NCBI RefSeq assembly: GCF_000970205.1
Contig: NZ_CP009512.1
Location: 1,302,001 to 1,366,000 of the forward strand
DNA length: 64,000 nucleotides
Origin: Methanosarcina mazei S-6
GTDB lineage: Archaea; Halobacteriota; Methanosarcinia; Methanosarcinales; Methanosarcinaceae
Reading direction: 5' to 3'
The notes under the pieces are model-generated. The model saw nothing but the letters and a program-made list of their open reading frames with translations, ran no database searches and was not told the DNA's origin. Within the stretch, counting starts at the first letter, position 1; each line of letters opens with the position of its first letter. The position numbers and the translations under genes were made by a program. Shown here one piece after another: positions 10,770 to 28,399 of the stretch.

Positions 10770-12116
10770 TTATGGTTTTATGAAGCTTTTAGCAAATTTT
10801 TCAAGTATTACCGAACTTGGATGCGCTGATAAGGATACTAGTTTATTTGCGAGCGCAACAGGGAACAAAGAATTATCATACATATCACATTTTAATTGTT
10901 CTAGATTCTGCAGAATTGAGTCTAGATTCTTAAAATTTTCTTTTTTTGGATCAAGAACGACAGATTCGTTTTCAACAGGTATAGTTACAACGTATAATCT
11001 TTCGTCACGGGATTTGAAAATCAATTTTCCCCCATAATAAGATGTCCTTGCATAGGGATTATCTGGATCAGCTTTGCCGGGAATGATATACTTATATATG
11101 TAGTTGTTGTTTATGAGCAAAAGTGTCCCAGATTCCATCTTATTTCCTATTTGAGCGGCGTGTTCTACAAAAGATCCACTTTTTTCAACACCTACTAAAT
11201 TAAGATCATATTTTTCCAATAAATAGTTAGACAAATCTCTCATTGGTTTATGCATATTCGCGGTGACACTAAAAAATGCTAAAGGCCCCTCTTTGATAAA
11301 TAATGTTTCTTTCAGCAGAGAGGGCTTTATCCTCAATATTGTTCTAATATAATGAATCAACAATATATGTTCAAGAAGATTGGTAACATATGCTAAAATC
11401 CCACCTGCCCCAAATTCATCATCAATTACTTCGTGAAGCCTAAAAACATCTGTTAAATATATTTTTTCGCCACAGTCATCGCAACAGAAAAGATAATTCT
11501 CTGACATATCCCTTTTGTTTAATTCAATTCTTTTATTGTTACATTTTGGATTTGGACAACTAGAGAGTGTGTAAGAAGCGATTTCCTTTTTACTGTCGTA
11601 TTCCCTATATAAAAACCATTTTAGAGTTTCAATGAAATTTTCTTTATTTTCTGTAAAAAACTCATAAAATGTATTTCTAACTGAATTGGTTAAACTTTCA
11701 TCTTTGTAAGAAATGTTTTTTGTGGGAAGAACAAATTTTAGCCGTTCTATTTTTTTGAGCCTTTCGATATCTTCGGGATCTATAAACGGTTTGTTAGAAA
11801 GAGTTTTAAGATCCTTAAGCTCAAAAATCAATGCTCCAAATTGAAAAAAGTTCAAAACACATGATGGAAACTCTCTTCTAATGAAAACCTCTGTATACCC
11901 TCCATCTATTGTGATAAAAAGGCTTATAGGGCTTTTTAAATCATAATTGACATCAGCTATAAGATTTTCTTCTCTTAGAACAATCTCATCAGAGCCGCTG
12001 GGAAGACTGCATTTATCTAAGAATTCTTTAATATCTTGGTCCCATATTATGTTAGTATGTGACGATTTACTCGCATATTCATTTGGTCTCCTTCCAGCTT
12101 GACTTGAATAACTCAT
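10770..12116 (-). CDS. NurA-domain nuclease
   Basis: 448 residues. The NurA hallmark is SLFITIDGGYTEVFIRREFP near residue 90, where the Asp of IDGG is a metal ligand; a second conserved region (ESGTLLLINNNYIYKYIIPG, then YYGGKLIFKS) follows in the C-terminal half. In between is a probable zinc ribbon, CPNPKCNNK and CCDDCGEK. NurA is a 5'-3' exonuclease and ssDNA endonuclease that works with the HerA translocase in end resection; defence-associated versions occur next to restriction genes. It starts 4 bp inside the HerA gene (ATGA overlap) and is the last gene of the operon. Confidence 0.82.
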   Translation of the reverse strand: MSYSSQAGRRPNEYASKSSHTNIIWDQDIKEFLDKCSLPSGSDEIVLREENLIADVNYDLKSPISLFITIDGGYTEVFIRREFPSCVLNFFQFGALIFELKDLKTLSNKPFIDPEDIERLKKIERLKFVLPTKNISYKDESLTNSVRNTFYEFFTENKENFIETLKWFLYREYDSKKEIASYTLSSCPNPKCNNKRIELNKRDMSENYLFCCDDCGEKIYLTDVFRLHEVIDDEFGAGGILAYVTNLLEHILLIHYIRTILRIKPSLLKETLFIKEGPLAFFSVTANMHKPMRDLSNYLLEKYDLNLVGVEKSGSFVEHAAQIGNKMESGTLLLINNNYIYKYIIPGKADPDNPYARTSYYGGKLIFKSRDERLYVVTIPVENESVVLDPKKENFKNLDSILQNLEQLKCDMYDNSLFPVALANKLVSLSAHPSSVILEKFAKSFIKP

Positions 12117-12985
12117 CTTAATTCCTCTAAATCAATTTCATCAGCCAAAAATCGATCGATGTGGACTGGTACCACAAAGGAATTCGAATAAGTCTTCATT
12201 CTGATGAATCCCTTGTCTGAGGTAGCGTTGAATAGAATTAAATTTTCGGTAAAATCTTTAAAATCATAGTATTTTTTAATTTCTTTTATCTCATCTTCAT
12301 TGTTTAAATGAGCAATAAACCAATTCTGGGTATTTTTTAATATATTTGAAGATATTGAGCTTACTTCTTGAGTTGCATAGATTAAACCTAAATTTAACTT
12401 TGCTCCTTCTTTTGCTATTCGGTTATATATATCACTCATATCTTTATCTTCTTTCTTTGGAAAGAGATTGTGAGCTTCTTCAAAGTAAAATTGTACAAAA
12501 TTATTTGGTTTATTTCTGGTGAAATTACCCATTGAGTGGTTGAATATTTTACTACATATTCTCTCAGAGTATAGCTTTTGAATTTCCGGATCTCCTTGAG
12601 ATAAGTCAATTATTATTATTTTACCTTGAGCCAATGCTTCTATTATTTCTTCTTCAAATGGTTTTTCGTTAGTGGCAGTATGTAGATCTTTCATTTTTCT
12701 TAGCTTAAGGTAACCACTGATATTTTGTCTGCCAGTTGGATTTTTTTTCTTAGTTAAAAATATTAGTAATGCTTTTAAATCTTCGTCTATCCAATCATGC
12801 CCTTTCTTTTTTTTATAATCTTCAAAAAATTCAGAATTAGATTGTTCCCAGATGGTAGTAAACCAACTAGTTGCCTCTTTAAGAGTAATTCCATTCTTTG
12901 GATTTATTTTTCCATCTTCTTGCACTAATTTGTTTAGGTTATCATTCCCCTCAAAATAAACTTTATAATTTGTTGGGGGAATCAA
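12113..12985 (-). CDS. HerA-like ATPase, C-terminal half only
   Basis: 290 residues. Visible are the Walker B region FVQFYFEEAHNLFP, the sensor segment LGLIYATQEVSSISSNIL, NWFIAHLNNEDE, and a C-terminal GFIRMKTYS, all typical of HerA/DUF87 hexameric DNA translocases. The N-terminal HAS barrel and Walker A (GxxGxGKS) are absent: the frame begins at a TTG inside the stop codon of the upstream helicase and enters directly at a mid-protein position (IPPTNYKVYFEG). Relatives have roughly 250-300 more residues upstream. Without Walker A it should not hydrolyse ATP. A deletion that also removed the end of res is the likely cause. Confidence 0.75.
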   Translation of the reverse strand: MIPPTNYKVYFEGNDNLNKLVQEDGKINPKNGITLKEATSWFTTIWEQSNSEFFEDYKKKKGHDWIDEDLKALLIFLTKKKNPTGRQNISGYLKLRKMKDLHTATNEKPFEEEIIEALAQGKIIIIDLSQGDPEIQKLYSERICSKIFNHSMGNFTRNKPNNFVQFYFEEAHNLFPKKEDKDMSDIYNRIAKEGAKLNLGLIYATQEVSSISSNILKNTQNWFIAHLNNEDEIKEIKKYYDFKDFTENLILFNATSDKGFIRMKTYSNSFVVPVHIDRFLADEIDLEELR

Positions 12986-15338
12986 TCCTGCACTGAATAA
13001 GCAACATAAGTATGCTGCTTTCTTCCTCCCATATCTGATTTTATCTGAGTAATCATGTTCGTTTTCTCTAGAAGCTGGTAGTATATTTTTGTCCAGTCTA
13101 GGAGATTAATTTCGGGGCTCCTGATTTCCCTTCTTGGTTTTTTGTACTCAGCTCTTATTTCTTCAGATTCATTACTTTCAAGGACATCAATTTTAGGATA
13201 AAGGTCAATCTCTACTGGCTCCATTTTTTCATAACTATCAAGCTCAAAAATATGGTTTTTAAATTCCCGGTTGTTATAGTCAGGTATGAGTAACTCTTCC
13301 TTTATGTAGGAATCATTAATCTGGATTTTTATTGGGATTTCAATTCTGTTGTCTACAGTCACTCCTTCATTTCTGAGGTAGTATTTGAACTGATCCATAT
13401 AGTTGGCTTCAATGCCGAAGATGTTCAGAGTTTCAAGCACAGGGATATATTCAGAAGAGCCATCTGTTGCAGTACTCCTTTTTAAGCTCATATTTTTTCC
13501 TTTGAGCCGAACACCTCTCCCGAAAAGCTGGATGATCTGCGAGCCTTCACTTTTGCCTATGTTCAAAAGACCCATGTTAGAAACGCGCCAGGAGTTCCAG
13601 CCCTCAATGAATTTCTTTGCCCCTATGAGTATATTGATGTTGGAATTGTTTGAGTTGATATCCCTGAAAAGAGAGTAGCTTATATCATCCGAATCAATGC
13701 GAAGGTTCAGGATTTTTGCGGTAGTGGGATCTTTGCATTCATTTTCTACACGATCCAAAAACTGGCCATCGCTTCCGATATTGATTACTCCAAAGTATTT
13801 TCCAGTTCCGCATTTAAGTGCGATTTCTCCTTTTGCATTTTTAATGTTCACTAGGTAGAGAGGAGCAGAGCCTACAGTGTGGAAAACCTTTTTCAGTATA
13901 TTGGTATAGATTTCTTCCGGAGATAGCCCGCTTTCACGGAGAAACTTGAGCTTCTGTTCAGGATATTGGGGAGAAAAGATGTCTATCCCTGTGGGATCTT
14001 CAAGTCCTGAATTCCCTTCAAAGATATCTTTGATGTTATTTATTACCCAGTTATCTTCGTTTTTGAGGAATTTTCCGAGGAAATTGATCACCTGTAAAAC
14101 ATCAGAAGTTTCAGTGTTTTTATTTACGCTACTCCCCAAAAAAACCCAGAGAGGTTCTGCAATATTATATTCTTGGGTTTCAGCATAGTTGTCATTGAAA
14201 ATTTTCTTTTGCTGGTAGAAGGAAAGCAAGTTCACGAGCATGAGTTTGTGCTTTATTTCATCAGAATATGCCTTGTCCTTGAGGTTCAAGATTTTGTATT
14301 TTTTTCCATATCCGTCTTCAAAGAAGAAGCGATAGGAGTAATCAAAAAGAATTGATTTGCCGTATTCATGAAAAAGTTTCTGTCCCTCTTCGCTCCCTGA
14401 AGCTACAGCCTGCCCGAAAGTAGCACTGTATTCAATTTTGAACCCATCGGAAGTGAGCTCATTCCTGAAGTAATTCCATTTCTTTCCACTACTACCTTTG
14501 TGTCCTTCATCCACAAAGACCAGGTTCTTTGTCCCGAATTTTTCAATATCTATGGTGACTCCAGAGCCCTTTTTTTCATCGGTAAGTTTATGGATGTCAA
14601 CCACTTTTATGGTGTTCTCATCTGCAAATTTGGAAAAATCCCCAAACTCTGTGTTTCCAAAAAGCATGCAAGGAATACGGCTTTTCTTCATCTCTTCGAT
14701 GTGCTGGAAGGAAAGATTTTCGTTTGGGGTGATGAGCAGAATGTTGTCAAATTTAATCCGGTATTTTCCCCTGTTATGTTTTATGAACTGGAGATAATTG
14801 AGATGAACGAGGAATGTTTTCCCAGACCCAGTTGCCATCCAGAATGCAAGTTTTCTGAGATCATTTCTTGAATGAATGAATCCACTATTCTCTTCTTCAA
14901 TTGGACTTGTATGCTCTTTAATGAATCTATACTCAAATTCTGTTAGTTCATTGATAAAATTAACATGATCAGAGAAATATCTATCTAGATCTCCCCGAAA
15001 AGCACAGATAGGTATTGGAAGTACTTGAGTTTTATAGGAGTTTCCCTAGACTGGTTGATATGTTCCATATACTCTCTGATGTTGCTGTCATAGTCTTCGA
15101 GCATGGGCTTAAGTCTTGGTTCCAGTTTCTTCAGGGAATAAAGAGCATGGAACATGTAGCTTCTCCCTTCTTCATCAAACCCTTCTTCTGTCTGTTTCAG
15201 GATCTCTTTCAGTTCTTTAAAATTTTTCATCCCGAAGAGATTGAGCATATATGAGTTCAGAACGAGGTGGTCGTCAAGCAAAGCCTTCCTTTTACCACTG
15301 CTATTCTTTGCCCCGCTCTTCCTTCTACTCACCGTCAT
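12982..15338 (-). pseudogene. Res-like superfamily 2 helicase, frameshifted and truncated
   Basis: Type III Res-like DEAD/DEAH helicase in two frames. The first piece (15338-14985, 117 codons) ends KYFQYLSVLFGEI then TAG. The matching continuation LDRYFSDHVNFINELTEFEY, then RNDLRKLAFWMATGSGKT, is in another frame that runs to 12982. Helicase motifs are present: Walker A ATGSGKT, DEGH in LVFVDEGHKGSS, motif VI in IIQLFGRGVRLKG. The normal C-terminus is missing: after YYQLLEKTNMITQIKSDMGG the protein ends in an unrelated 15-residue tail. An ATG inside the Walker A region (14838) is not a credible start. The gene begins just after mod stops. Confidence 0.8.
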
Positions 15339-15341
15339 ACC

Positions 15342-18300
15342 TCATGCCCCCATAAGCCTAGAAAAAGTTGGCTCAATCGGGAATGCACCTTCCACAGCAA
15401 AGTCCGAGTTTACATAAACCTTTGAATCAGGTTCCTTTTCCGAGAGAACGGTACTTTCAATAAAATTTTTATCCTCTTTGAGATCAAGTCCTACGGTGCA
15501 CCGCCATACCACAATAATATTTTCCTTTCTCTCGTTCTCCCCCTGAACCTTAAACCCATAAATCACACGGTAATAGGTGCCATTATTTTCGAAAGTTTTA
15601 ACTTTCTTCACATGGATTCCGAGAAGGTAGTTGAAAGTCTCTACAAGGTCTACAACCTGTTCCCGAAGTTCATTCTGATCAGAAACTTTGAGAGTATAGT
15701 TAAAAGGGTTTTTAAGCTTTGTTATGTTTAACCTGCAGGGACTATATGCAGTTTCAAAGTCGAGCATGTAATGTAACATGTAGTCCGAAAAACCATTAAG
15801 TCTTCTCTGAAATGAGCTTTTTTCTCCAAATTCTATGTTATTTAAGGTATCCTCGTACTGTTCAAGTGTAAGGTATTTGAAAATATGACTTTGCCCGTCT
15901 TTTGATTGGGGTCTTTCATCTTTCCAATCTTTTGAGTATATTATTTTTTTGATACGAGGTTTTAGGACTGAGTCAAAATAGTCACCCATCTCTATAAGTA
16001 TATATTTTCGGTTTCCACATTCTTCTTTGTTTAAGTTGAGAATTGCATGGGCAGTTGTACCAGAACCGGCAAAGAAATCAAGAATTATTGATGCTTCATC
16101 TTGAGATCCTAAATTTATTAAAAATTCCAGAAGTTTTGGAGGTTTTGGATATAAATCAATATCTTCATTTATAACATTTTTTAATGTGGACGTTCCTTCT
16201 TTTGTATTAGTTAATTTTGATATTACTGTTTTTGGATTTATTTTACTTTTTTCTTTTTCATAACATAGGATACCATTTTTATTGAAGTAAAATTTTGTAA
16301 CCTTTTGTCCTTTTGTATCGTAAGTCTCTTTTCCTTCAAGCCAATTCAGTATTTGTTTTTTCATTGCCCATCCAGCTTTGATTATTACTGGCTTTTTTAA
16401 TTTACCATTTTCAAATTCCATTTTTTCACTAATTATATATTCCTTTTCAGAGCCACCAATGCATCCAGAAAACTCATCTTTATCTCCCTCGAATTCTATT
16501 CCTGCCGGAAATAGAATTTCACTTGCTGGATTGGCTTTTGATATTTTTTTCAGTGCACCATGTGTTATAGTACCGCCGTCTGTATAATCAAAATTATCTA
16601 ACATTTTTTTATTTTTTGCATATGAATATATATATTCGTGCGATCTCGTAAAATGCCCAGCAGTTGTACCTGTACCAAGGTCCCATATTAGGTCTGCGAG
16701 ATAATTATCACTGCCAAAATATTCATTAAAAACTTGTTTTAAGTTATGAGCCTCGTTGCTATCAATACTACAAAAGAAAATTCCGTCTAATGTTAGAATT
16801 CCTTTTGAAGATTGAATTGTTTGTGATAGTAAAGATAACCAACAACTGTGCATATATCGATCTTTATATGGAAACTTATCCTTTCCAGTATTGTAAGGCG
16901 GATCAATATAAATACATTTTATCTGTTCAGTGTACTTGTTTAATAATAAATTCAATGCCTGCCAATTTTCACTATTTATCATCAGACCTCCAGTTGCTTC
17001 ATCGAGGTCATTGAAGTTTGAAAGGAGGCAGTCTTTGAAGGATTGGTCAAAGAACTTTGTATCAATTACAAGGTAAGGATTTGCTTTGAGATCTATGATC
17101 TGGGATTCAAGATCATAGAGACTTTTCTGATTCTTTATTCTGATACCATAGAGTTTTTCCCATTCTTCAAGCTGGGCTTTATTTTGCAGAATGTTGGGAT
17201 AGATAAATTCAGGTACATTGTCTATAGTCATGCAGTATTCAGATGTTAGGACAAACTTTTTTTTCTCAAAGAGCTTTTTTTGGAACTCTTCTATCTGGGA
17301 GAGGAAGTCAATAATCTTTAGGCAGATTGTTTTAAAGACCTTTACTCTTCCTACATAACGCTCCATCTTTGCTTCGTTTCCTGATTCGAGAATGTTGTCA
17401 AGGTCGAAGATTTCATTTTTGATGTAGAAATCAAGTTCATTGGTCAGGAAGCGCTTGAGGTTCTTGTGGATAAAGTAATCAGTATTATTTTCTCGCACAT
17501 AGCGGTTAAGGTGTTTTCGCAGGAAATTCTTTTTTCCGTCTATAGGTCTTGTAAGTACCTTTTTCAGGTCTGGATCTTTTATGATAGCAAGAATTTTGGT
17601 TTCTATTTCATCAAGAATTTTGTCCTGCACATTCTTAGTACCAAACTCCTTCTCTTCTTCCTTTGTCAATCCTCGGTATTCAAAGAGGATGGTAAGTTCT
17701 TTATTCTCAGGATAATAAAAAATAGGTTCCAGAACTTCCGTCTCATCTTCAGTTTCAATCTTGCTTTTTCTTTTCAGTATGAAGAACCGGTTTTCATCTT
17801 TGTTGCTGTTCTTTTCTATAGGGGTGTTTGAAATCCTGAAATGTGTGGTGTAAGTCTTCCCGTCATCCTTGAAAACATAGTTTTGGAAGTTCTTTCCTGT
17901 TTTTATGAAGTACTGACCCTTGTTTGCCCAGTGAAGCATGACCTCTTCACCGTTATAGGGGATGGCGTATTTCTGCTGTTTTGAATAGCGCTGGAGCGAT
18001 ATGAAATCTCCTTTGTCGTAGTAGCGTGAGAAAAAGTGATAAATGTGAGAGAAAATCTCGGCTTTGTGCTGTTCAAAGGTTGTTTCATCGTCTCCAAATT
18101 CTGAATCCCAAGTTTTTCTCTCTATTTCATTGCTTTGTAAATACTCTTCTGAAGTTTCAATTCCGTATGCAGGGAAATCTCCGAGTAAAGGATTAATTAA
18201 AGGGTTTATGATGGTCGTACCTGCAATCTCCGTAGCTGAAACTCCTAAATTGTTCAAAGTTGCTGCTTGAACCCATTTCTTTGCTAAAGAAGGAGAGGCC

Positions 18301-18497
18301 AGAGCTCTTTTTTCGGATGCTCTGTACTTTTCAAGTGCCTCTTCAACTGCGTTGATCAAATCTTTATTTATGAACTTTTCAATCTCACTGCGCTTCTGGT
18401 TCATTATGCGATAAATTCCAAAATCCAGATCTGTCGAATCGAACTGGAAAAGCGTATGTAAGAGTTCCTGGAGTTTTTGGGTGTAATCATCTATCAA
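15342..18497 (-). CDS. Beta-class DNA adenine methyltransferase (type III Mod-like)
   Basis: 1,051 residues, larger than classical type III Mod because of a 500-residue N-terminal region (FQFDSTDLDFGIYRIMNQKR near the start), which probably recognises DNA or partner subunits. The catalytic motif IV, IYIDPPYNTG (D532), precedes the AdoMet motif I, LDFFAGSGTTAHA (F809), the order of beta-class N6-adenine methyltransferases. Between them lies the target recognition region. It would modify host DNA and mark it as self, with the following Res-like helicase acting on unmodified DNA. The start is TTG 18497, since an in-frame TGA lies just upstream; no clear ribosome binding site. The gene looks intact. 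Confidence 0.9.
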   Translation of the reverse strand: MIDDYTQKLQELLHTLFQFDSTDLDFGIYRIMNQKRSEIEKFINKDLINAVEEALEKYRASEKRALASPSLAKKWVQAATLNNLGVSATEIAGTTIINPLINPLLGDFPAYGIETSEEYLQSNEIERKTWDSEFGDDETTFEQHKAEIFSHIYHFFSRYYDKGDFISLQRYSKQQKYAIPYNGEEVMLHWANKGQYFIKTGKNFQNYVFKDDGKTYTTHFRISNTPIEKNSNKDENRFFILKRKSKIETEDETEVLEPIFYYPENKELTILFEYRGLTKEEEKEFGTKNVQDKILDEIETKILAIIKDPDLKKVLTRPIDGKKNFLRKHLNRYVRENNTDYFIHKNLKRFLTNELDFYIKNEIFDLDNILESGNEAKMERYVGRVKVFKTICLKIIDFLSQIEEFQKKLFEKKKFVLTSEYCMTIDNVPEFIYPNILQNKAQLEEWEKLYGIRIKNQKSLYDLESQIIDLKANPYLVIDTKFFDQSFKDCLLSNFNDLDEATGGLMINSENWQALNLLLNKYTEQIKCIYIDPPYNTGKDKFPYKDRYMHSCWLSLLSQTIQSSKGILTLDGIFFCSIDSNEAHNLKQVFNEYFGSDNYLADLIWDLGTGTTAGHFTRSHEYIYSYAKNKKMLDNFDYTDGGTITHGALKKISKANPASEILFPAGIEFEGDKDEFSGCIGGSEKEYIISEKMEFENGKLKKPVIIKAGWAMKKQILNWLEGKETYDTKGQKVTKFYFNKNGILCYEKEKSKINPKTVISKLTNTKEGTSTLKNVINEDIDLYPKPPKLLEFLINLGSQDEASIILDFFAGSGTTAHAILNLNKEECGNRKYILIEMGDYFDSVLKPRIKKIIYSKDWKDERPQSKDGQSHIFKYLTLEQYEDTLNNIEFGEKSSFQRRLNGFSDYMLHYMLDFETAYSPCRLNITKLKNPFNYTLKVSDQNELREQVVDLVETFNYLLGIHVKKVKTFENNGTYYRVIYGFKVQGENERKENIIVVWRCTVGLDLKEDKNFIESTVLSEKEPDSKVYVNSDFAVEGAFPIEPTFSRLMGA

Positions 18498-18846: not shown

Positions 18847-19356
18847 TTATTCTACAAAAAGCAAGTTTTTCAATTTATCCACATATTCTTCCTTTACTTC
18901 CCTAGGTCTGCTCCTCTGAATAGAGCCTTCGAATCCAAAAATTGGCCTCATTTTTTTAGAAACTACGTGAAGATTTCTACCTATAGAATCACTGCCTTTC
19001 TCACTGATCTTTATGGCTTTATCAAGTAATTTACTCCCGTTTTTTTGGCCCATAATTATGACCAGATCATCAAGATGCTCTTCTCCTAAAATTTCCATTC
19101 TCTTTATATGAGCATTATTTTTGCATCTCTTGCAATACTTCTCTCTTTCTTCAGTGCTCAAGAGGTTAAAATCGATAACTTCTTTAACTGTGAAATATCC
19201 AATAATATATAATGCTGCTTCTTCCTTTTTTTGATTGTAAGGTTTTAGTCCTGCGTAAAAAACCAATAAGTCATTTTTTTGCAATCTCAGGAGAGAACTT
19301 CTTTTACTTGTCGGATCTCCATAAGTGTAGGTTTTAAACTCAGGGTCAAAATGCAT
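18847..19356 (-). pseudogene. Nmad3-like protein, C-terminal part (split by IS)
   Basis: 169 codons beginning at the Met that follows the target-site duplication: HFDPEFKTYTYGDPTSKRSS, then LQKNDLLVFYAGLKPY and YIIGYFTVKEVID. This fits the putative nucleotide-modification-associated domain 3 (Nmad3). The N-terminal 67 codons lie beyond the insertion element at 21081-21283. Removing the element plus one copy of the target duplication joins ...LKDVG to MHFDPEF... in frame, giving about 236 residues. The exact activity of Nmad3 is not established; it is predicted from genomic context with modified DNA. Confidence 0.75.
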
Positions 19357-19362
19357 CCCAAC
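19355..19362. repeat. Left target-site duplication of the IS1634-type element
   Basis: ATCCCAAC, repeated at 21081-21088. The last C may belong to the inverted repeat, so the duplication is 7 or 8 bp. Confidence 0.8.
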
Positions 19363-21080
19363 CTACTCTCGGCAGGTAAACATATAGATTAATATTATTA
19401 ATTTTATATCTCTTTCCTGGTCTTCCCATGTCAGAGAAAAACAGTAGTAGAAGAGTTGAATCTTCCTTAAAACGTACAAGGTTCTTAGGTCACCTTGGTC
19501 TCATGGCTGGAGTTTTCAGAGAACTTGAAGTTGACAAACTGATCGATGAGAAACTTCCCAAGGAAAGGGATCACAATGTTCCTCACTCAGTTTGCATCCT
19601 TGCCATGGTACTCAATGGTCTTGGTTTCATAGGGCAACGTCTGTACCTTTTTCCTGATTTTTTCAAAAACATTTCTACTGAAAGGCTTTTCGGAGACAAT
19701 GTAACAAGAGAAGACCTGAATCAATATGCTATCGGAGAGACTCTTGATAGAATCGTAAAATATGGCCCTACAAAACTGTTTACGGAAATTGCTCTTCACA
19801 TTATGGCTCGTCTACCTATTCCTGTTCACTGTTTACACGCTGACACTACAAGTGTCAGCGTTTATGGGGATTATGAAGACGAAGAAACTGAGTCTATTGA
19901 TATTACTTTTGGAATTCCCAAAAACGGAAGATGGGACCTCAAACAATTTGTACTGAGCTTGATTGTTAATCAGCATGGCATACCTCTTTTCATGAACACC
20001 CATTCAGGAAATGCTTCCGACAAAAACACAATTCTGGAAGCTATCAACTCTCTTAAATCAGTTCTAAGGCCTGAAAGCAAAGTGTACTATGTCGCTGATA
20101 GTTCCTTTTACACAGACAATAATATCAAGAACATAGGAACGTCATTCTGGATCAGTCGCGTTCCTGCAACAATTACCGAGGCAAAGGAACTGTTAGCTGC
20201 AAATCTGAACCTGAAAACGCTAAAAAGCGACGAAAGATACTCATTTTATCAAACCTTTGTGGAATATGGTGGAGTTAAACAAAAGTGGGTTTTGCTGCTT
20301 TCTCACAAGATGAAAGAGAAAAAAGAGCAAACTCTCAGAACAAAGCTTGACAAAGAGTTTGAAAAAGCAGAGAAGTCTTTTAAAAAGCTGAAAGGAGAGG
20401 ACTTCTTCTGTGAAGATGATGCATTAAAAGCCGCAGAGAAATGGATTCAAGATTTCCCCTCAATTGTGTTTGAAAATGTTGATTTGAAAGCCATTAAAAA
20501 ACGTGAATCGGGTAAAAGAGGCAGACCTTCAAAAGATGAGAAATTAAAGACTTATTACAGGATTGATGGCAGTTTAAAGACTAATGAAGCTTTTGTTTTG
20601 AAAGAAATGGAGAAAATGGGACTTTTCATTCTTGCAAGTAATGATATCAGTATTTCTCCTGAAGATATGCTGAAGTATTACAAAGGACAGGACAATGTAG
20701 AAAAAGGATTCAGGTTCTTGAAAAGTGATACGTTTAGCATATCGAAAGTTTACCTCAAGAAAAAATCCCGAATTGAAGCACTGACTATGATAATGGTTCT
20801 CTGCTTAATGATTTATTCAATTGCAGAATGGAAATTAAGAACAAAGTTAGAAGAAGAAAATGAAACGGTTCCAGATCAAAAAGGGAAGCCAACAAAAAGA
20901 CCTACAATGAGATGGATATTTTTCAATTTCCAGGGAATTACAGAACTTAGGATTCAGAAACAAGGAGAAATAGAGTCCGAAATATTGAATATGGAGGATA
21001 TTCACTGGAAGATACTGAGGCTCATGGGAGAAAAATATGAAAATATCTATCTCTAATTACGTCAACCTGCCGAATGTAGG
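19362..21080 (+). mobile_element. IS1634-type insertion sequence
   Basis: About 1,719 bp with imperfect terminal inverted repeats: the left end reads CCTACTCTCGGCAGGT and the right end, read inward, CCTACATTCGGCAGGT (2 mismatches in 16). It is flanked by the 7-8 bp duplication ATCCCAAC and carries one transposase gene. It lies inside nmad3, in the opposite orientation. Its transposase is intact and the target duplication is perfect, so the insertion is probably recent. Confidence 0.88.
19428..21056 (+). CDS. IS1634-family transposase
   Basis: 542 residues, a full-length DDE transposase of the IS1634 (IS4-like) group. N-terminal DUF4277-type region: VESSLKRTRFLGHLGLMAGV, then HNVPHSVCILAMVLNGLGFI. 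The first catalytic Asp lies in PVHCLHADTTSVSVYG, the second in VYYVADSSFYTDNN, and the Glu in the late segment YYKGQDNVEKGFRFLKSD, the Y(2)R-like region. The start is ATG 19428. No frameshift or stop; likely active. Confidence 0.92.
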   Translation: MSEKNSSRRVESSLKRTRFLGHLGLMAGVFRELEVDKLIDEKLPKERDHNVPHSVCILAMVLNGLGFIGQRLYLFPDFFKNISTERLFGDNVTREDLNQYAIGETLDRIVKYGPTKLFTEIALHIMARLPIPVHCLHADTTSVSVYGDYEDEETESIDITFGIPKNGRWDLKQFVLSLIVNQHGIPLFMNTHSGNASDKNTILEAINSLKSVLRPESKVYYVADSSFYTDNNIKNIGTSFWISRVPATITEAKELLAANLNLKTLKSDERYSFYQTFVEYGGVKQKWVLLLSHKMKEKKEQTLRTKLDKEFEKAEKSFKKLKGEDFFCEDDALKAAEKWIQDFPSIVFENVDLKAIKKRESGKRGRPSKDEKLKTYYRIDGSLKTNEAFVLKEMEKMGLFILASNDISISPEDMLKYYKGQDNVEKGFRFLKSDTFSISKVYLKKKSRIEALTMIMVLCLMIYSIAEWKLRTKLEEENETVPDQKGKPTKRPTMRWIFFNFQGITELRIQKQGEIESEILNMEDIHWKILRLMGEKYENIYL

Positions 21081-21283
21081 ATCCCAACGTCTTTGAGGCT
21101 TTTAAAAACGTAAGTAGACAATGGTAAACCTTTTCTACCGATTGTGTTTCCGTAAGTTTTATCTTCTTCTGACAGATAGCCTTCAGGAATAGGGATGTAC
21201 TCAAAAGAACCGTCTTTAAAAATAGGTCCAAGTGTTCCCCCGCTTCCTGTATCAATACCAACACGTAACAACATTGCTTTCAT
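21081..21283 (-). pseudogene. Nmad3-like protein, N-terminal part (split by IS)
   Basis: 67 codons from ATG 21283, which has a GGAGGGAA ribosome binding site. The product MKAMLLRVGIDTGSGGTLGP, then FEYIPIPEGYLSEEDKTYGN, ends LSTYVFKSLKDVG at the insertion point. The beginning (VRVGID... and VPIPE) is characteristic of Nmad3. The rest of the gene is at 18847-19356. It follows the helicase-nuclease gene by 75 bp on the same strand. Confidence 0.75.
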
Positions 21284-21358: not shown

Positions 21359-24094
21359 TCATCTTTTTTTCCATCTACATATCTTTGTAAGTTCACACTT
21401 ATTACAAAATTCCCCTGTACATGGTTTGAAGCTACGGTTTTTTATTCCCTCTATATGTCTTTCTACTTGTTTTTTTGTTTCTTCAAGTCTGGAATCATCT
21501 ACTTCCACATATGCGACTTTTGCGTCTGAGAGATATGCTACAGAACCCTTAGTCACATTTTCCCCAAGAATTTTCATTCCTATTGAGTACATCTGGATTT
21601 GCATGGCAGATTCAGCTTCTGTGATAACGCTATCTGATGTTTTATAGTCACGAACTTCCAGCTGATCTCCATCATGAATTATAACGTCAATTTTTCCAGT
21701 AATTGTGGCTTTTTGGAGTGGAAACTCTATCCTTGCTTCAACTTCCTGTATATTATGCATATCCGTTTCATGCTTTTTCACAAAACTTATGAGCTTTCTC
21801 TTAGCTGCTTCCTTTATTTTTTCTCCCTGTATCTTATTTACAAAGGGCATATAGAAATTCTCATCGACTGCTGTTGAAATTGCACTTATGGGGCTGTACC
21901 CTTCATTTTTAATCAGATCTGCTGCTTGCTGAAGGCAGAAATGTAGAGTATTTCCATAACCGATTCTCTCTTTGAATCCCGGCTCGTAACCCCAGATTTG
22001 GTTTAATCTGTAAAAGTAAGGGCATTTCCGGTATAGGATAATCTCGGAGGGGGTGTACGTAAGTATCTCATCTGAAATTTTGGAACTTGTTAGGTCATGC
22101 AAAGGTAGTTCGTCTTTTGCAGATAATTTCGTAGTCTTTGAATCCCGAAGCCCTTCACTGATAAAAGTGCTTTCTCCTGAGTTTCTGCCGTTTAGCGTTC
22201 CAAAGTGGCTAACAACAAGCACATCCTTTGCCCTCGTGAGAGCAACATAGAAAAGTTTCTTTTCACTCTCTATATCTCCCTCATATTTCTCGGCATCAAA
22301 CATATTCCTTGGGATCATCCATGTTTGCTCTCTTCCTGCCATACTCGATGGAAAACGCCTAGCGTTCATAGCTGGGACAAAGACCAGTGGCCATTCAAGT
22401 CCCTTTGCTTGGTGTACTGTCATCAACTGAACAGCATCTACTCCTCGGATGTCGTCTCCCGGCTGCTCTTCATAAGAGCCTGATGCATAACTATTCATAT
22501 ACCAGCAGAGATTCTTCAAATCTCTTTCCCAGTTTCTCTGCCTGCCACCAAGCATATTTGCAGATTCAAAATCAGTTAAAAGAGAGCTAAACCTTCCCAA
22601 GTTTGCCATTATCACAGCATGATTTGGATCTTCTGAATCAAGGTTAAGGTAATTTAACAGGACGAGAAGTTCATGGTACACTTCTGTAAAGCTTTCGTAT
22701 TTTGAATCAAGCGTATTTTTTTTCCAGTTTTCGAGCTTTTTAATTACTTCGCTATGTAATTTACAGCTAGGAACTCCATCATTCCAGCTTTCAAGTGCAG
22801 AATAGAGGAGCTCTTCTCCTTCCTCTTTATTTTCTCGATCCCATTGGCTTTCGTACCAGAATCCTTTATCGTAAAGCCAGGCGAAAAGTTTGCCCATAGT
22901 TTGAATTTCAGGCCTGCGGAAAAGACCAACTTTACCTCCTACAATAAAAGGTATGTTTCTTTCCCTGAATATATCAATGAATGGAGGCGCTGATGTATTT
23001 ACACTGCGAAGTAGTATTCCAATATCACCATATGAACACTTTCCAGCATCTACATGTTTCTCTATCTGATCCGCAATCCATTTTGCTTCATGGATGTTAT
23101 CCGAAAGTTTTGCAATATATACTGCACCCTCTTCTTTTCTCACAGGATCAAGATGGTCATATTCATCTTCAAAATAATCTGAGAACTGATTTGAAACTTC
23201 TATAATTTGCCTGCCACTCCTTCTATTTTCATTAATAGAAATAGTTTCGGCATCTATGTGCTTTACTGCAAAATCTTCAAAACACTTCTCATCTGATCCC
23301 CGCCACTGGTAAATAGTTTGCCTGGGATCTCCCACAATAAAAATCTCGGAATTCAGTCCTATTAACTGTATAAGTTTTTCCTGAGCCCTATTTATATCCT
23401 GGTATTCGTCAACAATCAGATATTTTACATCTGAGAGTACGTTTTGCTTCTCTTGTAAATTTGTTAGGGCTAGATTGATCATTCTATTAAATGTCAACCT
23501 CTTATGGGAATCTAAGATTTCTTCATATTTTTTAAAACACTTATAGAATTCTGGAGCTTTCTTTTTTAGATTGTTTTCTGGTATTAGCTCCCCATATACC
23601 ACGTTAAGATTTTTAAGAAATGTCCGGCAGTTCTGGGTGTAATTTCCATTTTTACCAAACCCAAGCTCCCATCCCACACGCATTAGAAAAGCAGTTTCTT
23701 GATTTTCGTCAAGAACTCCATAGTCTCCAAACTTAAAATGGTTCTCTAGTAAAAAAGAGCAGTAACCATGTATTGTGCCAATGTACATTTCCCCCAGTTT
23801 GGCACATATCTCTTCACCACCAAGTTGGCGGACACGATCATAAACTCGACTTTTCATCCCCTGCGCTGCTTTTTCCGTAAATGTGAAAGCAACAATAGAT
23901 GCTGGTTTAACATTTTCGTAAAGAAGCAAACACACAATTTTTCTTGTGAGTGTTTCAGTTTTCCCGGCGCCAGCTCCAGCAATAATCCTGATATGTCTTC
24001 TGTCTGATAGAACGGCTTTTTTCTGACTATCAGATAGTTCTTTCGGTTCTTTAATTATCAATTCCAGAAATCTTTTATCACCCATTTTTTTCAC
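21359..24094 (-). CDS. UvrD/Rep-type helicase with C-terminal PD-(D/E)XK nuclease
   Basis: 911 residues. Superfamily 1 helicase motifs: Q-motif region LSDSQKKAVL, Walker A IIAGAGAGKTETL (residues 38-50), Walker B LIVDEYQDIN, motif III VGDPRQTIYQWRGS, motif V VQLMTVHQAKGLEWPLVFV, motif VI LFYVALTRAK. The C-terminal third is an AddB/RecB-like nuclease: YTPSEIILYRKCPYFYRLNQ, GKIDVIIHDGDQLEVRDYKT with the catalytic D and ExK-like DYK, and a Cys cluster (CTGEFCNKCELTKICRW) that with the earlier Cys would bind an iron-sulfur cluster. It is probably a DNA-end resection or invader-degrading enzyme. It heads the defence-like operon. Start GTG 24094 or ATG 24085. Confidence 0.88.
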   Translation of the reverse strand: MKKMGDKRFLELIIKEPKELSDSQKKAVLSDRRHIRIIAGAGAGKTETLTRKIVCLLLYENVKPASIVAFTFTEKAAQGMKSRVYDRVRQLGGEEICAKLGEMYIGTIHGYCSFLLENHFKFGDYGVLDENQETAFLMRVGWELGFGKNGNYTQNCRTFLKNLNVVYGELIPENNLKKKAPEFYKCFKKYEEILDSHKRLTFNRMINLALTNLQEKQNVLSDVKYLIVDEYQDINRAQEKLIQLIGLNSEIFIVGDPRQTIYQWRGSDEKCFEDFAVKHIDAETISINENRRSGRQIIEVSNQFSDYFEDEYDHLDPVRKEEGAVYIAKLSDNIHEAKWIADQIEKHVDAGKCSYGDIGILLRSVNTSAPPFIDIFRERNIPFIVGGKVGLFRRPEIQTMGKLFAWLYDKGFWYESQWDRENKEEGEELLYSALESWNDGVPSCKLHSEVIKKLENWKKNTLDSKYESFTEVYHELLVLLNYLNLDSEDPNHAVIMANLGRFSSLLTDFESANMLGGRQRNWERDLKNLCWYMNSYASGSYEEQPGDDIRGVDAVQLMTVHQAKGLEWPLVFVPAMNARRFPSSMAGREQTWMIPRNMFDAEKYEGDIESEKKLFYVALTRAKDVLVVSHFGTLNGRNSGESTFISEGLRDSKTTKLSAKDELPLHDLTSSKISDEILTYTPSEIILYRKCPYFYRLNQIWGYEPGFKERIGYGNTLHFCLQQAADLIKNEGYSPISAISTAVDENFYMPFVNKIQGEKIKEAAKRKLISFVKKHETDMHNIQEVEARIEFPLQKATITGKIDVIIHDGDQLEVRDYKTSDSVITEAESAMQIQMYSIGMKILGENVTKGSVAYLSDAKVAYVEVDDSRLEETKKQVERHIEGIKNRSFKPCTGEFCNKCELTKICRWKKR

Positions 24095-24548: not shown

Positions 24549-24896
24549 TCAATTGCTAAAACTCAACTCTTCAATCAGTTTTTCAAGCTCTCTCTCAACC
24601 ATGGGAACTCTGTTTTTAGCGGTATCCCAGACAAGATCATAATCGACATTAAAATAGGCGTGTATCAAGCGATCCCTCATACCTGCCATACCTTTCCAAT
24701 CAAGGTTTGGGGCTCGTGACTTTATATCTGCGGGGATGGCTTTCGATGCCTCTCCCAGTATCAGTAACTGATGAGCAACTGCACTCCTGGTTTTCTCGTC
24801 CTTTAAAAAAGTCTCTTTTTCCATACCTTGCAAGAAATCCTTTATATTTCTGGAAGAATCGAGCATTTCAGAAAGGTATAGAAGCGGAGATCTCAT
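24549..24896 (-). CDS. hepT: HepT-type (DUF86) HEPN ribonuclease toxin
   Basis: 115 residues. The HEPN catalytic motif RX4HXY is present in GMRDRLIHAYFNVDYDLVWD. HepT is a ribonuclease toxin kept inactive by its MNT partner, which in characterised systems AMPylates the Tyr of this motif. The ATG overlaps the stop of mntA by 4 bp. Gene order (mntA then hepT) is standard. The pair sits between two GYD genes on the other strand. Confidence 0.9.
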   Translation of the reverse strand: MRSPLLYLSEMLDSSRNIKDFLQGMEKETFLKDEKTRSAVAHQLLILGEASKAIPADIKSRAPNLDWKGMAGMRDRLIHAYFNVDYDLVWDTAKNRVPMVERELEKLIEELSFSN

Positions 24897-25204
24897 ACCG
24901 GCACCAGTTCTCTTAGCACGTCATCCTTCATCATCGGGTGAAGAGCTCTCTCCGAAACAACATCCACTGAGATTCCAAAAAGATCTTCGAGGTAATCTCC
25001 AAGCCCCACAAGCTCAAAAAGGGATGCTCCTTCTCCAAATCTTACCAGGACATCAATATCACTTCCCTCTTTTTCCTCTCCACGTGCATATGAACCAAAA
25101 ATTCCAATGATCTCAGCTTTGAATTTTTCTTTTATTTCATCCTTTCTTTCCAGGATAAGAAGCCGGATCTGATTGACATCAATGTGTATTTCTTTATCTT
25201 CCAT
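24893..25204 (-). CDS. mntA: MntA-type nucleotidyltransferase antitoxin
   Basis: 103 residues with the minimal nucleotidyltransferase signature GIFGSYARGE (G37-S38) followed by GSDIDVLVRF (D49, D51). The later SLFELVGLGDYLEDLFGISV is typical of MNT antitoxins. It neutralises the downstream HepT, probably by adenylylating it. Start ATG 25204; upstream 25205-25440 is AT-rich promoter DNA without other genes. Confidence 0.9.
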   Translation of the reverse strand: MEDKEIHIDVNQIRLLILERKDEIKEKFKAEIIGIFGSYARGEEKEGSDIDVLVRFGEGASLFELVGLGDYLEDLFGISVDVVSERALHPMMKDDVLRELVPV

Positions 25205-25481
25205 AATATCCGTCTCTTATATTTCTTTCACTGCTGGAATTATATGGCTACTTTTCTCTATACTGATATAATATTTCATGTGTATATTCTTTTTCTGCAG
25301 TTTTGGTTCCAACTTGGTCCCAATTTAGAGCCCATCCGAAAAGTGTTACAACCTGCTGTAACTTTACAATAACCAAAATGTGCTATTCTACAAAAGCACT
25401 CAATTTTATTTAAAACCTTTAATAGATATGTATATATTTTATCTATAGAAATATTAATCCAAGTAATTGGGAGGGGAATTT

Positions 25482-25814
25482 ATGCAAGATTACCTGATTC
25501 AAATATCCTATACGCCTGAAGCGGTAGCCAGATTAGTAAAAAATCCGGAAAATCGCGAAGAAGTGGCACGTTTTTTAATGGAAAAACTTGGGGGAAAACT
25601 TAAAGGTTTCTGGGTTTCATTTGGTGAATATGACTTGGTAGAAATTGCGACATTACCTGATAATGTAAGTGCAGAAGCCCTAACAATGGTTCTCCTGGCT
25701 GGAGGTGCCGTAAAGATGGTCAGGACCACACCGTTGATGTCGGTCAACGAAGGCATGGAGGCTATGGAGAAAGCAGCGAAGCTGGAACTGGAATACAGAC
25801 CACCAGGCAAATAA
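25482..25814 (+). CDS. GYD-domain protein, copy 2
   Basis: 110 residues from ATG 25482, preceded by a strong GGGAGGGGAA ribosome binding site. MQDYLIQISYTPEAVARLVK, GKLKGFWVSFGEYDLVEIAT and VKMVRTTPLMSVNEGMEAME match the first copy. Codon choice and 5' flanks are also alike, so the two come from one duplication and the mntA/hepT pair now lies between them. A candidate TATA-like stretch (TATATATTTTATC) lies near 25430. Confidence 0.87.
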   Translation: MQDYLIQISYTPEAVARLVKNPENREEVARFLMEKLGGKLKGFWVSFGEYDLVEIATLPDNVSAEALTMVLLAGGAVKMVRTTPLMSVNEGMEAMEKAAKLELEYRPPGK

Positions 25815-25970
25815 TTAAGAAGAAATCGCTTTTTCTTTTTTACCTGGCTTTCAACCAGCTTTTCGGATCAGTCTTATCTCGGTATGCAGTCGAAAATTAA
25901 AAAAGAATAAACTGCCCTCAGGCAGCTGAAAAAAACGCGAATCCTTCAAAAGGATTAATCTTCAATTACC

Positions 25971-26738
25971 TTAAAGTGCCGTCCAGCCGCCGTCAACCGT
26001 AATTATCTGGCCTGTAATATATTTTGATGCTTCGGACGCGAGGTAAACAACCGTTGTATCCAGGTCTCCTGTCTGTCCTGCACGTCCCATAGGGCACATA
26101 AATTCAATAATTTTTGCAAATTCCGGGTCAGCAACAACCCCTTCAGCCATTCCCAGGGCAAAATAACCGGGTCCGATCGCATTCACGGTAATGCCTTCTT
26201 TTGCCCATTCGGTTGCCAGGGACTTGGTGAGCATTAAAACTCCGCCTTTTGTAGAGCAGTAGGCTGTGACCGGCATTCCTTTCATCGACACAGTCGAATG
26301 AATCGATCCTATGTTAATGATTCTTCCGTATTTCTGCTTCAGCATTACTTTCCCGACTTCCCGCGCAAAGAAAAAAACACCATTCAGGTTGGTATCAATC
26401 ATATTGCGCCACATTTCATCACTTGTTTTATCCGCAGCGTCAACAAGCCCGAGACCGGCATTGTTTACAAGTATATCTATTTTGCCGAAGTCTTTCTCTA
26501 TTTTTTCAACCGCACTTTTAATCTGGTCTGTTTGCATCACGTCACAAATGTAATACCGGCAGGTTACGCCGATTTTTTCGATCTCCTTCTGGACTTCCTT
26601 TAATTTTTCTTCACGGCGTGCAACTATAGCAATATCTGCACCCTGGTTTGCCAAAGCCCTGGCAAACTCAACTCCAAGGCCCGATGAAGCACCTGTTACA
26701 ATCGCAACTCTTCCAGTTAAATCAAATAGATTTTTCAT
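25971..26738 (-). CDS. Short-chain dehydrogenase/reductase
   Basis: 255 residues, classical SDR length. NAD(P) motif TGASSGLG at 15-22, structural NNAG at 92-95, catalytic S145 region (NIGSIHS), Y160 and K164 in YCSTK, and C-terminal YITGQIITVDGGW. It resembles gluconate 5-dehydrogenase and 3-oxoacyl-ACP reductase-type enzymes; the substrate cannot be fixed. It is monocistronic, with a GGAGGGT ribosome binding site before ATG 26738. Confidence 0.9.
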   Translation of the reverse strand: MKNLFDLTGRVAIVTGASSGLGVEFARALANQGADIAIVARREEKLKEVQKEIEKIGVTCRYYICDVMQTDQIKSAVEKIEKDFGKIDILVNNAGLGLVDAADKTSDEMWRNMIDTNLNGVFFFAREVGKVMLKQKYGRIINIGSIHSTVSMKGMPVTAYCSTKGGVLMLTKSLATEWAKEGITVNAIGPGYFALGMAEGVVADPEFAKIIEFMCPMGRAGQTGDLDTTVVYLASEASKYITGQIITVDGGWTAL

Positions 26739-26800
26739 TTTAACCCTCCTTATTCTTTATCCCCTTACGAAAAAAGGAACACTGTATATTGGAATCATAT

Positions 26801-26850
26801 AGTTATGAGTCACATAGTTATGAGTCACATAGTTATGAGTCACATGGTTA
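26801..26850. repeat. Tandem repeat, 15-bp unit
   Basis: AGTTATGAGTCACAT repeated three times from 26801 plus a partial fourth copy. It lies about 70 bp upstream of the SDR gene, so it may overlap its promoter. Confidence 0.9.
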
Positions 26851-27426
26851 TATTAGATTTGTTGATCTCAATTTAAAACAGCAGTGTGGGAAAGTTCTGT
26901 AAAATCCAAACCTTTTACTCCGGAAGGTAACTCTTAAAACCCGTCATATCCTTTTTCTCCAGGATATTTCAAAAAAACAGTGTTGTTTTCACTGCATAAA
27001 CGATTCTGTGACTTGCAGTTTTTTATTCCGTCTTTCGCTTCAGTTATACTTTTTTCTTATCCTGTCCGGGTCAAGATGGGGTTTTACTCCAGCACTGTGC
27101 AGCCTGACTTTAAAACCATCAGATTTTATCCAGAGATAAGGACTTCCTTTTTCTTCCAGTTTTTTGTACTGGCGTTTCATGAAAGTCTCGTAATCAACCT
27201 CATCCATAGATGCCTGATCCTGAAAAATGGCCTGAGGAATTCAGGAAAAGGGTATGTGAGCTGTCGAAATGAATCTATTTTCTCTAAATTTTCTTCTCAT
27301 TTTTTATTCTTGCCTTTACCTTTAAACTTTTCAATGATGTTCAACCTATTTTTTCCTTTTTGCTTTCCTTGCTGTTGTGAACAGGAAAGCAGAACATGTT
27401 TCTGACCGATTTCTTTATATACGGAA
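26851..27426. other. Spacer, nothing recognised
   Basis: AT-rich. A short coding-like run (MPDPEKWPEEFRKRVCELSK, from 27209 to a TGA) may be a fragment of a lost gene, but there is no ribosome binding site or homologous neighbour to support it. Confidence 0.35.
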
Positions 27427-27427
27427 A

Positions 27428-27709
27428 TGATGTGTATAGTGGAGCCATTAACTAGTTAGTATCCGTTAATTTCTGAGAATATCTGGCCGATTTCCGGTCA
27501 CATTTTTGACTATCAGGAGCCTGTGGCTGTCGGCAGATGGGATGGGGCCCCAGTCCGGAAATGCTAAGAGGCTCAGAGATTTTTGTATTGCATGGAGAAG
27601 GTTGCGCTGGAGCGATTCCTGTGGCAGTTCGGAACTGCGCAGAAGCGCCTGAAAACCTTTCACGCTCACTGATTATGGAAAGGCTCATCCGAGCATCCGG
27701 AAGATAAAA
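27428..27709 (+). pseudogene. Unidentified gene remnant upstream of eS1
   Basis: Two coding-like pieces in different frames. The first begins at ATG near 27428 and, after an in-frame TAG, continues PLISENIWPISGHIFDYQEP and VAVGRWDGAPVRKC before TAA. The second reads SPEMLRGSEIFVLHGEGCAG, then AIPVAVRNCAEAPENLSRS and ends RLIRASGR then TAA at 27707-27709. Codon pattern is Methanosarcina-like in both. I do not recognise the family. A frameshifted gene, or a structured RNA with chance frames, would both fit. Confidence 0.35.
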
Positions 27710-27715
27710 ACCTGA

Positions 27716-28399
<684 letters not shown>

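What the first reader, a model, noticed from the sequence alone, without database searches (positions are those of the whole stretch)
12940..13100. Res and HerA are both shortened at one junction, pointing to a deletion
Res stops soon after its YYQLLEKTN segment, well before the normal family end. HerA starts, overlapping the Res stop, at a mid-protein position with no HAS barrel and no Walker A. One deletion of about 1.5-2 kb, removing the res 3' end and the herA 5' half, explains both.
Basis: partly seen in the sequence, partly recalled or inferred. Interest (0 to 1): 0.6.

Follow-up and report, generated by a model that had tools for sequence, protein, structure and literature searches.

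The report
Broken restriction operon with deletion scar
In an archaeal genome, two neighbouring anti-virus defence genes have each lost part of their sequence at one shared break point, so this is an ordinary decaying defence island and not a new minimal system.

Summary
On the minus strand the type III Res frame stops 296-326 aa short of its intact homologs, losing the nuclease domain. HerA homology starts at residue ~355 of 669, after Walker A. The two meet within ~15 bp (window 13054-13069).

Two corrections: HerA homology runs ~70 nt past its TTG 'start' into the out-of-frame Res tail, so the Res-stop/HerA-start overlap is chance; and Res is broken a second time, by a 4-nt loss near 14985.

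The deletion reading is partly supported. No relative has the short form, and the missing pieces were not found elsewhere in the genome. Intact arrays UvrD-Mod-Res-(EVE)-MTase-HerA-NurA exist in the same phylum, with a methyltransferase between res and herA, so a single loss would be ~3 kb, not 1.5-2 kb. In the same genus, at the same site, two genomes carry MTase-HerA-NurA without Res; the closest Res relatives have UvrD-Mod-Res without HerA. A replacement joining two modules therefore fits almost as well as a deletion in one operon.

Restriction is very probably dead here. Mod, UvrD and NurA frames remain open. An IS also splits an Nmad3 gene. Ordinary; low interest.

The parts
13054..13069 (-). 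junction: end of Res homology against start of HerA homology (about 15 ambiguous bases, short CTTCYAGA-like similarity on both sides)
   Evidence: blastn to G020 and G019 stops at 13054; Res alignment ends at LLE, about 13069; related DNA of both sides compared
14985..15338 (-). N-terminal piece of Res (117 aa), cut off by a frameshift
   Evidence: REase_III profile PDLC03654 20-127; matches L024 Res residues 4-103; 4 nt shorter than G188 DNA at the conserved EIYLDR
12982..14985 (-). main Res frame, helicase part, lacking the C-terminal 296-326 aa; last ~24 codons are out-of-frame herA DNA
12113..13054 (-). 3' part of herA (G020 residues about 355-669), no Walker A
10770..12116 (-). NurA, intact frame of 448 aa, 82% identical to G020
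   Evidence: Pfam NurA 2e-5
15342..18497 (-). type III Mod methyltransferase, full length 1051 aa, DPPYNT and FAGSG motifs present
   Evidence: PDLC03646 2.5e-167; Pfam N6_N4_Mtase; aligned end to end with homologs
18847..19366 (-). C-terminal part of an Nmad3-domain gene
   Evidence: Pfam PF18754 2.2e-15, profile 69-199
19367..21068 (+). insertion sequence with a 542-aa transposase, splitting the Nmad3 gene (borders approximate)
21069..21283 (-). N-terminal part of the Nmad3 gene
   Evidence: translation MKAMLLRVGIDTGSGG...
21359..24094 (-). UvrD/PD-(D/E)XK helicase-nuclease, 911 aa, intact frame
   Evidence: Pfam UvrD-helicase 3e-49 and PDDEXK_1 4e-21; 61-62% identical to the UvrD next to Mod-Res in G188 and G472

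Best explanation
This is a decaying defence island. A type III restriction module (UvrD - Nmad3 - Mod - Res) lay upstream, on the same strand, of an MTase - HerA - NurA module. One illegitimate (non-homologous) recombination removed the res 3' end, the methyltransferase gene between and the herA 5' half, about 3 kb. It left res helicase sequence joined out of frame to the herA C-terminal half. The join is shown; the single deletion and its size are inferred. Consequences (inferred from family knowledge): Res has no nuclease domain and a second break, and the HerA remnant cannot bind ATP, so neither restriction route can work. Mod may survive as a lone methyltransferase.
For: Both genes end at one point within ~15 bp with no filler. 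Colinear intact arrays UvrD-Mod-Res-(EVE)-D12 MTase-HerA-NurA occur in G305, G331 and G448, and the same without a detected UvrD in G217. Nearest HerA relatives G020/G019 have a 322-aa MTase directly upstream of HerA. The missing Res C-terminus, MTase and HerA N-terminus are not found elsewhere in the genome. All other Res and HerA homologs checked are longer, or cut by a contig end, IS or stop. Further lesions: 4-nt Res frameshift, IS in the Nmad3 gene. The HerA remnant and NurA still show low pN/pS, about 0.10-0.19, which fits a recent loss.
Against: No genome was found with close homologs of both halves side by side. The combined arrays are only ~30% (HerA) and 43-48% (Res) identical and use a different MTase (D12 instead of N6_N4_Mtase). 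Same-site relatives show no Res/Mod relic, so the combined operon may never have existed intact here. The deletion size cannot be measured.
Confidence: 0.6

Rival explanations
1. Replacement join: the site held MTase-HerA-NurA, as in G020/G019, and an incoming UvrD-Nmad3-Mod-Res fragment integrated by non-homologous recombination, replacing the MTase and the herA 5' half. The truncation of res marks the end of the incoming fragment. No combined operon and no internal deletion were needed.
For: Same chromosomal site as G020/G019, which have MTase-HerA-NurA and no Mod/Res relic. The closest Res relatives G188, G415 and G472 are UvrD-Mod-Res with no HerA detected nearby. The extra block lies between shared flanks at about 13054 and 24892.
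Against: The order and orientation equal those of the combined arrays in G305, G217, G331 and G448, which a random join would match only by luck.
Confidence: 0.3
2. A conserved working minimal system in which short Res and short HerA act together.
For: HerA remnant and NurA frames are open with low pN/pS.
Against: No relative has the short forms. Res is split by a frameshift. No Walker A, and the HerA frame has no start near the junction except a conserved Leu TTG.
Confidence: 0.04
3. Assembly or sequencing artefact at the junction.
For: No reads or second assembly were available; contamination is estimated at 2%.
Against: Single-contig 4.14 Mb genome at 99.97% completeness; only short, weak repeats (23 and 11 nt) around the junction to cause misjoining; missing parts found nowhere else in the assembly.
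Confidence: 0.05

Closest known systems
Type III restriction-modification system (Mod/Res), PADLOC MTase_III PDLC03646 and REase_III PDLC03654
   Same: Mod full length with DPPYNT and FAGSG motifs; Res helicase part with ATGSGKT, DEGH and FGRGVRL motifs; Mod-Res gene order; UvrD upstream as in G188, G415 and G472
   Different: Res lacks the C-terminal nuclease domain and is frameshifted; an Nmad3 gene split by an IS lies between UvrD and Mod
MTase-HerA-NurA module at the same site in G020 and G019
   Same: HerA C-terminal half and NurA 74-86% identical; same neighbouring genes
   Different: here the MTase and the HerA N-terminal half are absent; G020 and G019 have no Mod/Res
UvrD-Mod-Res-EVE-D12 MTase-HerA-NurA arrays in G305, G217 and G331 (G448 without a detected EVE; UvrD not detected in the stretch fetched from G217)
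   Same: same order and strand of the shared genes
   Different: no EVE or D12 gene here; the middle is missing; low identity
TdpA / HerA-family ATPases with solved structures (PDB 8wet, 8xau)
   Same: sequence similarity over the ATPase C-terminal part (using the intact G020 HerA)
   Different: the window remnant lacks the P-loop half that such machines need

Membership tests
Type III restriction-modification system | Mod methyltransferase with catalytic motifs | tested here: met
   PDLC03646 2.5e-167; PF01555 1.3e-29; DPPYNT and FAGSG in sequence
Type III restriction-modification system | Res with helicase motor and C-terminal PD-(D/E)XK nuclease in one open frame | tested here: not met
   frameshift near 14985 and C-terminal 296-326 aa absent
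HerA translocase | HAS-barrel region and Walker A | tested here: not met
   homology begins at residue ~355 of 669, after GMTRTGKS
HerA translocase | C-terminal ATPase half with Walker B | tested here: met
   FYFEEAHN present; HerA profiles match
NurA nuclease | NurA domain in an open frame | tested here: met
   PF09376 2e-5, 448 aa, 82% identical to G020
Working restriction or defence activity | cuts foreign DNA in the cell | not testable with these tools
   needs experiment

The most novel reading that the evidence does not exclude
The intact arrays behind this relic (UvrD-Mod-Res-EVE-MTase-HerA-NurA) form one composite defence system that couples type III restriction to a HerA-NurA DNA-destroying machine, and this locus is its decayed form.
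Probability: 0.25. Interest if true: 0.4.

Novelty: new member of a known kind. Interest (0 to 1): 0.15.

Why it matters
It prevents mis-annotation of a relic as a minimal type III/HerA system. It also points to intact composite arrays (G305, G217, G331, G448) that are better material for studying how type III restriction and HerA-NurA modules combine.

Tried and rejected
Conserved minimal form: rejected, as all homologs checked are longer or cut by a contig end, an IS or a stop (G205's Res frame is 810 aa, still longer than here). Rearrangement with the missing parts elsewhere in the genome: nothing found. IS-mediated join: no IS or inverted repeat at the junction; the IS at about 19367-21068 lies 6 kb away. 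Res/Mod relic next to the MTase in G020 or G019, which would have proved an ancestral combined operon: none. Microhomology at the junction (CTTCYAGA-like): seen, but with about 25% divergence from the compared sequences it is too weak to weigh. Literature: no paper found naming this gene combination; the BREX-related paper PMC12839542 treats other HerA systems.

Full report
The finding describes the minus strand around 12940-13100. The res frame (12982 to about 15000) ends at 12982 and a HerA-like frame follows. Profiles confirm a type III system. Mod matches PDLC03646 (2.5e-167) and the main Res frame matches REase_III PDLC03654 (3.4e-114). The HerA frame matches only the C-terminal part of HerA profiles, and the next gene is NurA.

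Intact relatives set the expected sizes. Res homologs in L022-L024 and further genomes are 1020-1117 aa and carry 296-326 aa beyond the point where the window's match ends (LLDWTKIYYQLLE). That stretch includes the putative nuclease motif YPDFI...DPKG. G020, of the same genus, has an intact 669-aa HerA. The window matches it only from residue ~355, so Walker A (GMTRTGKS) is absent. DNA similarity to G020 and to G019 both stop at 13054, and Res homology ends at about 13069, so the join is tight.

The TTG at 12985 is the Leu codon of the conserved AGLIP, not a meaningful start, and HerA homology runs ~70 nt further into the Res tail. Res carries a second lesion: 4 nt fewer than the homologous G188 DNA at the conserved EIYLDR near 14985, which splits its first 117 aa from the rest.

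Was there an intact combined operon? Four genomes of the same phylum (G305, G217, G331, G448) have Mod, Res, (EVE in three), D12 MTase, HerA and NurA in a row on one strand, with UvrD upstream of Mod in three of them; in G217 UvrD was not detected in the stretch fetched. In contrast, G020 and G019 have MTase-HerA-NurA at the same chromosomal site as the window, beside a PIN-domain-like gene and the rpS3Ae/topA/thiC genes (gene names from my reading of the sequences), with no Res or Mod relic. The nearest Res relatives G188, G415 and G472 have UvrD-Mod-Res with no HerA detected. So a deletion inside a combined operon (about 0.95 kb of res + 1.0-1.5 kb between + 1.06 kb of herA, about 3-3.5 kb) and a replacement that joined two modules are both open. 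I favour deletion because gene order and strand match the combined arrays.

No other genome in the genus sample carries Res or the junction, and the missing pieces were not found elsewhere in the window's genome. The empty own-genome searches have a positive control only in that the HerA and full Res queries did find their remaining parts.

Rest of the island: UvrD is intact (911 aa). An Nmad3-domain gene is split by an insertion sequence. NurA and the HerA remnant show low pN/pS against G020/G019, consistent with recent loss, though this measures mostly time before the event. By family knowledge, Res without its nuclease and HerA without its P-loop cannot restrict; whether Mod still methylates is untested. 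The host is probably Methanosarcina (my inference from gene content and genome size; not tested).

Noticed in passing
window 14985-15018: Res is split by a 4-nt loss in an AT-rich tract at the conserved EIYLDR motif; the 117-aa upstream ORF is the Res N-terminus.
   Followed up: yes
window 18847-21283: A gene with an Nmad3 (nucleotide modification associated) domain is interrupted by an insertion sequence with a 542-aa transposase.
   Followed up: partly
L059, L060, L061, L062: Intact arrays UvrD-Mod-Res-EVE-D12 MTase-HerA-NurA (EVE not detected in L062; UvrD not detected in L060), a possible composite defence system for which no paper was found.
   Followed up: partly
L026 5713-6993: In G019 the HerA gene of the same-site MTase-HerA-NurA module is interrupted by an insertion sequence with a 405-aa transposase, and its NurA is split over two frames: independent decay at the same site.
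   Followed up: no
window 24892-27785 against L025 11845-14331: The prolyl-tRNA synthetase-like gene present at this place in G020 and G019 was not seen in the window; a short-chain dehydrogenase-like gene (25971-26738) lies there instead.
   Followed up: no
L088 2908-5136: G472 carries a 742-aa P-loop protein between UvrD and Mod, in the position where the window has the Nmad3 gene: a variable cargo slot.
   Followed up: no
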